A DNA stretch of 60,970 nucleotides from Candidatus Parcubacteria bacterium (GTDB lineage Bacteria > Patescibacteriota > Patescibacteriia > Patescibacteriales > UBA12075), in the NCBI GenBank assembly GCA_023132155.1, contig JAGLYP010000005.1:1-60970 (forward strand). Reading direction: 5' to 3'. Both the position numbers and the translations under genes were made by a program. The first letter of the stretch is position 1; each line of letters starts with the position of its first letter. This document shows, one piece after another, positions 12,046-12,956 of the stretch. The notes under the pieces are model-generated. The model was not told where the DNA came from. It worked only from the letters and a program-made list of their open reading frames with translations, and did no database searches.

Positions 12046-12956
12046 ATAAAAATTTTCACCAATCTATCATGGCCGCGCAGGTCTTTTTTTATTTGAAATT
12101 TTGCCTGTGGGAATTTTTGTTTGATTAATTTTGAAATGTTTGTTTTTTGCGATGGATCAATTTCTAAATACAAGGTTATTTGCGGACAGGCGGATAGATT
12201 GATAGAATTTATTTGATTAAATAATTCGCGATAATATTTTAGTCCGTCATTGCTGGCCGTGAGCGCCAATTTCGGTTCTTTTTGAATGGTTGGAGAATTT
12301 TTGATTTGCGCGGGAGTGAGATAGGGGAGATTAGCGGTGATTATTATGGGATTTTGGGGATTGTTGAGATGTTTGAGATTTTTAGGATTATTTAAAATAG
12401 GCTCAAGCAAATTACCGCAAAGGAATTTGATATTTTTATTTACGCCGCGAGATTTGGCATTTTTTTTAGCGATGTAAAGTGCTTTGGATGAAATGTCAGT
12501 CGCAAAAAAATTAAAGGAGCTTAGCTCCGAAGTTTCGGAGCTAAGCTCCTTTAATTTTTTTGCGAGCGTAATAATAATACACCCACTCCCTGTCCCGATA
12601 TCAATAATTGTTGTGTGCTGTGTGCTGTGTGTTACGTGCTTCAATACTTCATCAACCATTAATTCAGTTTCAGGTCTTGGGACCAGGACGTTTTTATTTA
12701 CAAAAAAATCAAGCCCGTAGAATTCTTTATGTCCTGTAATGTAGGCAATTGGTTCGCCTTTAACTCTGCGGCTGATATATTTTTCAAAAAGTTTTATTTT
12801 TTGATTATTTAAATTTTTATCAAAATGAGTAATAAGATACTCCCGCGAACATTTTAAAATACGCGCCAATAAAATTTCCGCGTCCATATTCGGATTTGGA
12901 ATTTTATTTTTTCGCGATTTTATCGTGGCAATTGCCAACACTTGATTTATTGTCAT
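12042..12956 (-). CDS. prmC: peptide chain release factor methyltransferase PrmC/HemK
   Basis: 304 aa; IIDIGTGSGCIIITLA, ATDIS, NLPYL variant of NPPY. Confidence 0.9.
   Translation of the reverse strand: MTINQVLAIATIKSRKNKIPNPNMDAEILLARILKCSREYLITHFDKNLNNQKIKLFEKYISRRVKGEPIAYITGHKEFYGLDFFVNKNVLVPRPETELMVDEVLKHVTHSTQHTTIIDIGTGSGCIIITLAKKLKELSSETSELSSFNFFATDISSKALYIAKKNAKSRGVNKNIKFLCGNLLEPILNNPKNLKHLNNPQNPIIITANLPYLTPAQIKNSPTIQKEPKLALTASNDGLKYYRELFNQINSINLSACPQITLYLEIDPSQKTNISKLIKQKFPQAKFQIKKDLRGHDRLVKIFI
12500..12565. repeat. near-perfect 66-bp palindrome inside prmC
   Basis: 32-nt arms around GT: TCGCAAAAAAATTAAAGGAGCTTAGCTCCGAA-GT-TTCGGAGCTAAGCTCCTTTAATTTTTTTGCGA. Confidence 0.97.

What the first reader, a model, noticed from the sequence alone, without database searches (positions are those of the whole stretch)
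12500..12565. Near-perfect palindrome translated in frame inside prmC
Two 32-nt arms around a 2-nt spacer lie wholly inside an otherwise intact prmC. On the coding strand it is read as AKKLKELSSETSELSSFNFFA, placed between the SAM-binding strand (DIGTGSGCIIITLA) and ATDIS, a loop where insertions may be tolerated. Because it is palindromic, the opposite strand reads almost the same peptide (AKKLKELSSEVSELSSFNFFA). This matches the behaviour of Rickettsia palindromic elements, which insert in frame into genes. I do not know of a description of such elements in this lineage.
Basis: partly seen in the sequence, partly recalled or inferred. Interest (0 to 1): 0.85.

Follow-up and report, generated by a model that had tools for sequence, protein, structure and literature searches.

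The report
Translated mobile palindrome inside prmC
A 34-letter DNA palindrome has copied itself into several essential genes of a tiny Patescibacteria-type bacterium and is translated as a probably harmless 11-residue loop, and its likely mover is a transposase whose own gene carries the same palindrome in frame, which would explain why the inserts do not kill the genes they enter.

Summary
The palindrome is real (12500-12565, two 32-nt arms) and is read in frame in an intact prmC. The outer 16-bp arms are not part of it: other coding copies lack them and relatives encode similar flanks without an insert. The genome holds 15 full-length cores, eight of the prmC subtype. All eight lie in open frames, in gatA, leuS, ileS, valS, rsmA, prmC, a transposase and one unidentified ORF. 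The core occurs in about ten of 85,488 species, all Patescibacteria. The likely driver is a RAYT-type Y1 transposase: 23 of 27 readable RAYT genes in this order carry a palindrome inside their own reading frame, at one conserved loop, often with a matching one just after the stop codon. In two of four lineages tested, the RAYT's palindrome is dispersed through its own genome and absent from the others. In one lineage all five dispersed copies examined are in frame (SMC, recG, polA, prmC, cysS). It works like Rickettsia palindromic elements and REPINs but fails defining tests of both (size; GTAG tag; extragenic). New variant. Mobility is inferred, not observed.

The parts
12516..12549 (.). 34-bp palindromic core, GGAGCTTAGCTCCGAAGTTTCGGAGCTAAGCTCC: two inverted 13-bp half-sites with an 8-bp spacer; read on the minus strand as ELSSETSELSS (PrmC residues 137-147)
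12500..12515 (.). left outer arm (16 bp), complementary to the right outer arm but not shared with the other coding copies; host sequence that is palindromic around the insert
12550..12565 (.). right outer arm (16 bp), as above
12042..12956 (-). prmC (release factor glutamine methyltransferase), intact 304-aa ORF carrying the insert in the loop between the motif-I helix and strand beta-2
17535..17568 (.). second core in the window, sister subfamily GAAGCTTAGCTTCGGGTACCCGAAGCTAAGCTTC, intergenic, 17 nt after a stop codon
17514..17589 (.). longer palindrome centred on the second core, with flanking arms ending in a T-run; terminator-like

Best explanation
The thing in prmC is one copy of a very short, non-autonomous mobile palindrome (two inverted hairpin half-sites, REPIN-like) spread by a Y1 RAYT-type transposase. 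SHOWN: the core is dispersed in this genome; its GGA subtype lies in open frames of essential genes in the only one of three frames that has no stop; relatives lack it or carry other inserts at the same loop; RAYT genes of this order carry such a palindrome inside their own reading frame and often a matching one just after the stop codon; for two RAYT lineages the same sequence is dispersed in that genome and absent from eleven others. INFERRED: the transposase excises and inserts the single-stranded hairpin, preferring centres of existing inverted repeats. Because the donor palindrome sits in the transposase's own reading frame, it must stay free of stop codons in one frame, so copies that land in the right phase and in a surface loop add a harmless peptide and persist. 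In the prmC copy the peptide is ELSSETSELSS, at a loop that has taken several different palindromes in related bacteria.
For: 15 full cores in the genome, backwards-read control 0. All eight GGA copies are in open frames: gatA, leuS, rsmA, valS, ileS, prmC, a RAYT, one unidentified ORF. In only ~10 of 85,488 species' genomes, all Patescibacteria, none in viral contigs. Relatives lack the insert; PrmC homologues at the same loop carry ELSSEASELSS, ELSSGYPELSS, a half-remnant, other repeats or nothing. 23 of 27 readable RAYT ORFs have an in-frame palindrome at one loop. Internal and downstream palindromes match within a locus (mean 0.56 vs 0.18 across loci, permutation p = 5e-5). G049's half-site: 19 hits in G049, 0 in 11 genomes; G022's: 14 and 0. 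Five dispersed G022 copies are in frame in SMC, recG, polA, prmC, cysS. RAYT model's best PDB match is 4er8, RAYT bound to a REP hairpin.
Against: No transposition or strain-level empty/filled pair was seen, so junctions and any target duplication are unknown. Two RAYT lineages tested (G005, G014) have their palindrome essentially only at the RAYT locus, and G049's dispersed copies are intergenic. RAYT presence and element presence correlate only weakly across 59 genomes (5 of 8 against 15 of 51, p = 0.08). In this genome's own RAYT the internal palindrome is GGA-type and the downstream one GAA-type, so they match only in general form. Classical RAYT substrates carry a GTAG tag, absent here.
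Confidence: 0.8

Rival explanations
1. A MITE-type element mobilised by another transposase (for example a DDE enzyme), with the RAYT genes merely being further victims of insertion at a permissive loop.
For: RAYT, prmC, leuS and gatA all have permissive loops that take several kinds of repeat; element and RAYT presence correlate only weakly across genomes.
Against: 23 of 27 RAYTs carry a palindrome, at one loop, and each locus tends to have its own sequence, often matched by one beyond the stop codon. Palindromes are 5.5 times denser at RAYT loci than at housekeeping loci (0.48 against 0.09 per kb). No target duplication or DDE-type ends were seen.
Confidence: 0.12
2. Hairpin-driven inverted duplication (template switching) makes palindromes in place, with no mobile element, as proposed for the coding palindromes of nematomorph mitochondria (PMC6649704).
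For: The 16-bp outer arms in prmC and the 17-20-bp arms of three intergenic copies are perfect and locus-specific, which template switching could produce.
Against: The same 34-bp core occurs at 0-1 mismatch in eight unrelated genes; local duplication cannot give one sequence everywhere. It may still explain the outer arms.
Confidence: 0.04
3. The insert has a selected function, such as regulating translation through an mRNA hairpin or altering PrmC.
For: The palindrome stays near-perfect, and PrmC proteins only 60-72% identical to this one carry the same or a similar insert with AKKLK and FNFFA flanks.
Against: The two closest PrmC proteins (75% and 74% identical) lack it; on a loop-free tree carriers and non-carriers interleave; the same loop holds unrelated repeats in other species; a half-element remnant is tolerated (P0073; gatA of G002).
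Confidence: 0.04

Closest known systems
Rickettsia palindromic elements (RPE; Ogata et al. 2000, 2002, known here through PMC10969869 and PMC3733652)
   Same: Palindromic repeats inserted in frame in unrelated housekeeping genes, translated, tolerated, several families per lineage.
   Different: RPEs are described there as about 150 bp (RPE-4 and RPE-6 are REP-like); this core is 34 bp and unrelated in sequence, lies in Patescibacteria, and has a candidate transposase that carries the element in its own reading frame.
REPINs with RAYT (TnpA-REP) transposases (PMC2817692, PMC3116915)
   Same: Two inverted short hairpins form the unit; a Y1 transposase is tied to a lineage-specific palindrome; genome-private dispersal.
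   Different: No GTAG tag; half-sites are about 13 bp with an 8-bp spacer; in most lineages here one palindrome lies inside the transposase gene in frame instead of flanking it; many copies are in coding sequence.
Intragenic GTAG/CGTC REPs and TIRtrons (PMC3733652)
   Same: REPs translated inside genes, including DNA-repair genes; RAYT-like genes with non-GTAG inverted repeats, some overlapping gene ends.
   Different: That paper reports repeats flanking or overlapping the 5' or 3' ends of transposase genes; in the parts read it does not report a palindrome inside the coding loop, nor Patescibacteria.
PARCELs (PMC2996958)
   Same: Palindromic DNA translated in proteins and possibly mobile.
   Different: Tandem 25-residue repeats forming amphipathic, often surface-protein domains; here single short inserts in enzymes.

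Membership tests
Rickettsia palindromic elements | dispersed palindrome inserted in frame within protein-coding genes | tested here: met
   eight of eight GGA copies in open frames
Rickettsia palindromic elements | length of about 150 bp and RPE family sequence | tested here: not met
   core is 34 bp; species-wide scan hits only Patescibacteria
Rickettsia palindromic elements | insertion does not abolish the enzyme | not testable with these tools
   ORF and fold are intact and the insert lies in a loop, but activity was not measured
REP/REPIN | inverted pair of short hairpins acting as a dispersed unit | tested here: met
   13-bp half-sites paired with an 8-bp spacer in 15 copies
REP/REPIN | GTAG (or CGTC) tetranucleotide tag beside the hairpin | tested here: not met
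   no such conserved tag beside the cores in the listed flanks
REP/REPIN | mainly extragenic location | tested here: not met
   GGA subtype: 8 of 8 in ORFs; only the GAA subtype is intergenic
REP/REPIN | associated Y1 RAYT transposase with cognate palindromes | tested here: met
   not universal
RAYT transposase | PF01797 domain with HuH motif and the RAYT fold | tested here: met
   PF01797 hit, NHYHF motif, best fold match 4er8
RAYT transposase | gene flanked on both sides by inverted REPs | tested here: not met
   usual layout is one palindrome inside and one downstream; G014, G013 and G009 also have an upstream one
MITE of a DDE transposon | terminal inverted repeats shared with an autonomous transposon, with target duplication | tested here: inconclusive
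   no strain-level empty sites, so junctions were not resolved

The most novel reading that the evidence does not exclude
A class of REP-type transposase in Patescibacteria keeps its mobile palindrome inside its own reading frame. The transposase gene acts as a proof-reader: any palindrome variant that could not be translated would destroy its own transposase, so only translatable palindromes spread, and a selfish element can invade essential genes of minimal genomes without killing them. The palindrome-encoded segment, modelled as part of an extra helix beside the HuH domain, might also help recognise the same palindrome as DNA, coupling enzyme and substrate.
Probability: 0.45. Interest if true: 0.88.

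Novelty: new variant of a known kind. Interest (0 to 1): 0.77.

Why it matters
In-frame palindromes in Rickettsia proteins were described over twenty years ago; the sources read here name no mobilising enzyme for them. Here such inserts come with a candidate transposase whose own gene contains the palindrome in frame, which explains why the elements can be translated and offers a biochemical test. It also suggests a steady source of new loop peptides in essential enzymes of Patescibacteria (PrmC, aminoacyl-tRNA synthetases, GatA, RecG, Pol I), relevant to reading protein alignments and to how streamlined genomes tolerate mobile DNA.

Tried and rejected
PDB sequence search with the RAYT protein: no hit; the fold search worked. 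Target-site duplication: AA...AA flanks in gatA and leuS suggested 2 bp, but most copies have AA...TT or unrelated bases, so rejected as unproven. 'The 66-bp palindrome is the element': rejected, since other coding copies share only 34 bp. A recQ partner: recQ adjoins the RAYT in 5 of 30 loci, so not a fixed part. A general link between RAYT presence and element presence: only weak. GGA copies being coding-biased: eight of eight is not surprising at an assumed ~88% coding density (p = 0.36); what is non-random is that the GAA subtype is absent from genes and that the coding copies are all in the one open frame. Viral contigs: no match. My notebook entry of 25/30 RAYTs is superseded: 23 of 27 readable ORFs. 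No held paper contained Patescibacteria together with palindromic, repeats and in-frame.

Full report
OBSERVATION. Arms 12500-12531 and 12534-12565 are perfectly complementary over 32 nt with a 2-nt spacer. They lie inside an intact 304-aa prmC on the minus strand. Palindromes this good occur four times in the window and never in five block-shuffled controls.

WHAT IS DISPERSED. The whole genome (1.23 Mb, 42 contigs) holds 33 half-sites GRAGCTTAGCTYC against zero for the backwards-read control, and 15 full 34-bp cores. Each core is two inverted 13-bp half-sites, each itself nearly palindromic, around an 8-bp spacer. There are two subtypes. GGA, GGAGCTTAGCTCCGAAGCTTCGGAGCTAAGCTCC, is open in one frame only and reads ELSSEASELSS in either orientation. 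GAA, GAAGCTTAGCTTCGGGTACCCGAAGCTAAGCTTC, would read KLSFGYPKLSF. All eight GGA copies are in open frames: gatA, leuS, rsmA, valS, ileS, prmC, a Y1 transposase and one ORF at a contig end with no Pfam match (valS identified by comparison with relatives). None of eight GAA places (seven full cores and one cut by a contig end) lies in a convincing gene; the copy at window 17535 overlaps only a 101-aa open frame opposite a gap between genes. Several start 14-20 nt after a stop codon. The GGA/GAA split is unlikely by chance (Fisher p = 8e-5). Given an assumed coding density of about 88%, eight of eight GGA copies in genes is not itself surprising; avoidance of genes by GAA is.

BOUNDARIES. Flanks of the coding copies are unrelated to each other. 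In relatives without the insert, PrmC reads IAKKLKKRKNINYLGLDIS (G014) or LAKELKSQKTINFFASDIS (G013). So AKKLK and (N)FFA are native-like and the insert is 11-12 codons. The extra 16-bp arms are nevertheless unusual: exact flank complementarity of 5 bp or more is found in 9 of 24 copies of this family, 7 of 7 of a second family and 6 of 9 of a third, against 0.3% at random positions. In genome G022 a second palindrome family (GACATCCGATGTCC...GGACATCGGATGTC) occurs un-nested once and several times with a different palindrome at its exact centre. I read this as insertion at the centre of existing inverted repeats; later arm correction by template switching remains possible. In G013, which has no insert, prmC is already imperfectly self-complementary around the site (by eye).

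AGE AND TURNOVER. gatA of a same-genus genome has a half-element (GGGAGCTTAGCTCCGG) at the orthologous position: either an old shared insertion that has decayed, or a separate event. In 120 PrmC homologues the same loop carries ELSSEASELSS, ELSSETSELSS, ELNSTSQELNS, ELSSGYPELSS, a half-remnant (AKKLSSFNFFA), quite different repeats, or a short native loop. A maximum-likelihood tree without the loop interleaves carriers and non-carriers, so there has been repeated gain, loss or replacement. LeuRS and GatA loops were hit in both G000 and G022 by different families.

STRUCTURE. The insert fills a gap in the alignment to T. maritima HemK (1sg9). In an AlphaFold model (mean pLDDT 93.7) residues 137-147 lie between helix 126-138 and strand 148-154; the block 141-150 has the lowest confidence, 77. 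The SAM motif and the NLPY motif are untouched. The model's best PDB matches are HemK/PrmC structures.

DRIVER. The genome has two Y1_Tnp genes over the Pfam cut-off, plus a broken RAYT copy. The C28 RAYT contains a GGA core in frame and a GAA core 14 nt after its stop. This is general: of 30 RAYT loci from the order, 27 gave readable ORFs and 23 of these carry a palindrome inside the ORF, between the YNRG strand and the HuH strand. In 15 loci with a second palindrome downstream, the two resemble each other far more than palindromes of other loci (0.56 against 0.18, permutation p = 5e-5). Most of the best 120 homologues whose motifs could be located have a palindrome-like peptide at that loop (judged by eye at protein level only). 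Half-sites from the G049 and G022 RAYTs are found 19 and 14 times in their own genomes and never in eleven others. For G005 and G014 they are confined to the RAYT locus, apart from one stray match. The five dispersed G022 copies examined are all in frame: SMC, RecG, Pol I exonuclease, PrmC N-terminal domain, CysRS; the G049 places outside the RAYT are intergenic. The RAYT model (pLDDT 91.1) best matches 4er8, a RAYT bound to a REP hairpin; the palindrome-encoded residues 62-72 overlap helix 65-76 of a helical insertion.

DISTRIBUTION. A degenerate pattern of the core hits 11 stretches in about ten of 85,488 species' genomes, all Patescibacteria where the title or the match to the order searched tells; no viral contig; 5 of 111 genomes of the order, apart from this one, hold GGA with up to 3 mismatches or none do better than two copies (tallies 5 genomes with a match: this one with eight copies, and four with one or two). 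Outside this genome it is read in frame in a protein of L054, in membrane proteins of L055 and L060, and in a RAYT of L036/L056.

MECHANISM. Shown: dispersal, in-frame position, RAYT association, cognate dispersal in two lineages. Inferred: RAYT catalyses movement of a single-stranded hairpin; target preference for inverted-repeat centres; persistence by selection, because the palindrome's open frame is enforced by its residence in the transposase gene. Not shown: transposition, junctions, translation.

AGAINST THE LITERATURE. RPEs behave similarly (PMC10969869, PMC3733652) but differ in size and sequence. RAYT/REPIN systems share the enzyme and the paired-hairpin layout (PMC2817692, PMC3116915), but their REPs carry a GTAG tag important for activity (PMC8266576), flank the gene and are mainly extragenic. 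In the parts of these papers that I read, and in full-text searches, I found no description of a palindrome carried in frame inside the RAYT gene, nor of such elements in Patescibacteria. Many subscription papers, and Ogata 2002, were not available.

Noticed in passing
window 45428-45485 and 21335-21368: Two further strong palindromes sharing an ACCCCGCCC(C/T)TCG core near gene ends; the first lies between convergent genes. They look like terminators or another repeat family.
   Followed up: no
window 4599-4708: Inverted repeat TGTCATTGCGAGC...GCTCGCAATGACA (33-nt arms, 44 nt between). A similar sequence seems to be translated in frame in this genome's valS (CHCEEWSEAERRGNPENRASDSGLLRVARND).
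   Followed up: partly
L008 (valS of the window's genome): One essential gene seems to carry four kinds of translated repeat: TINNSQLTIN, ELSSEASELSS, SFAKATAGK and the CHCE...RND type.
   Followed up: partly
L044 and L201 (leuS); L104 (leuS of G001): LeuRS carries a NUDIX domain in G000 and G022 (Pfam hits); in G001 a different ~100-residue segment, ASCH-like by eye and not tested, sits near the palindrome site.
   Followed up: partly
L049 (C28) and L147, L137, L141, L156: recQ lies next to the RAYT gene in 5 of 30 RAYT loci; in G000 a GAA palindrome separates the two genes.
   Followed up: partly
L196-L203, L168, L170 (genome G022): Nested palindromes: one family's half-sites bracket various other palindromes at its exact centre, in frame in alaS, leuS, gatA, polA and prmC.
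   Followed up: partly
G000 contigs C21 (end) and C28 (start): Contigs break at a core copy, so the true number of copies in the genome is probably higher than 15.
   Followed up: no
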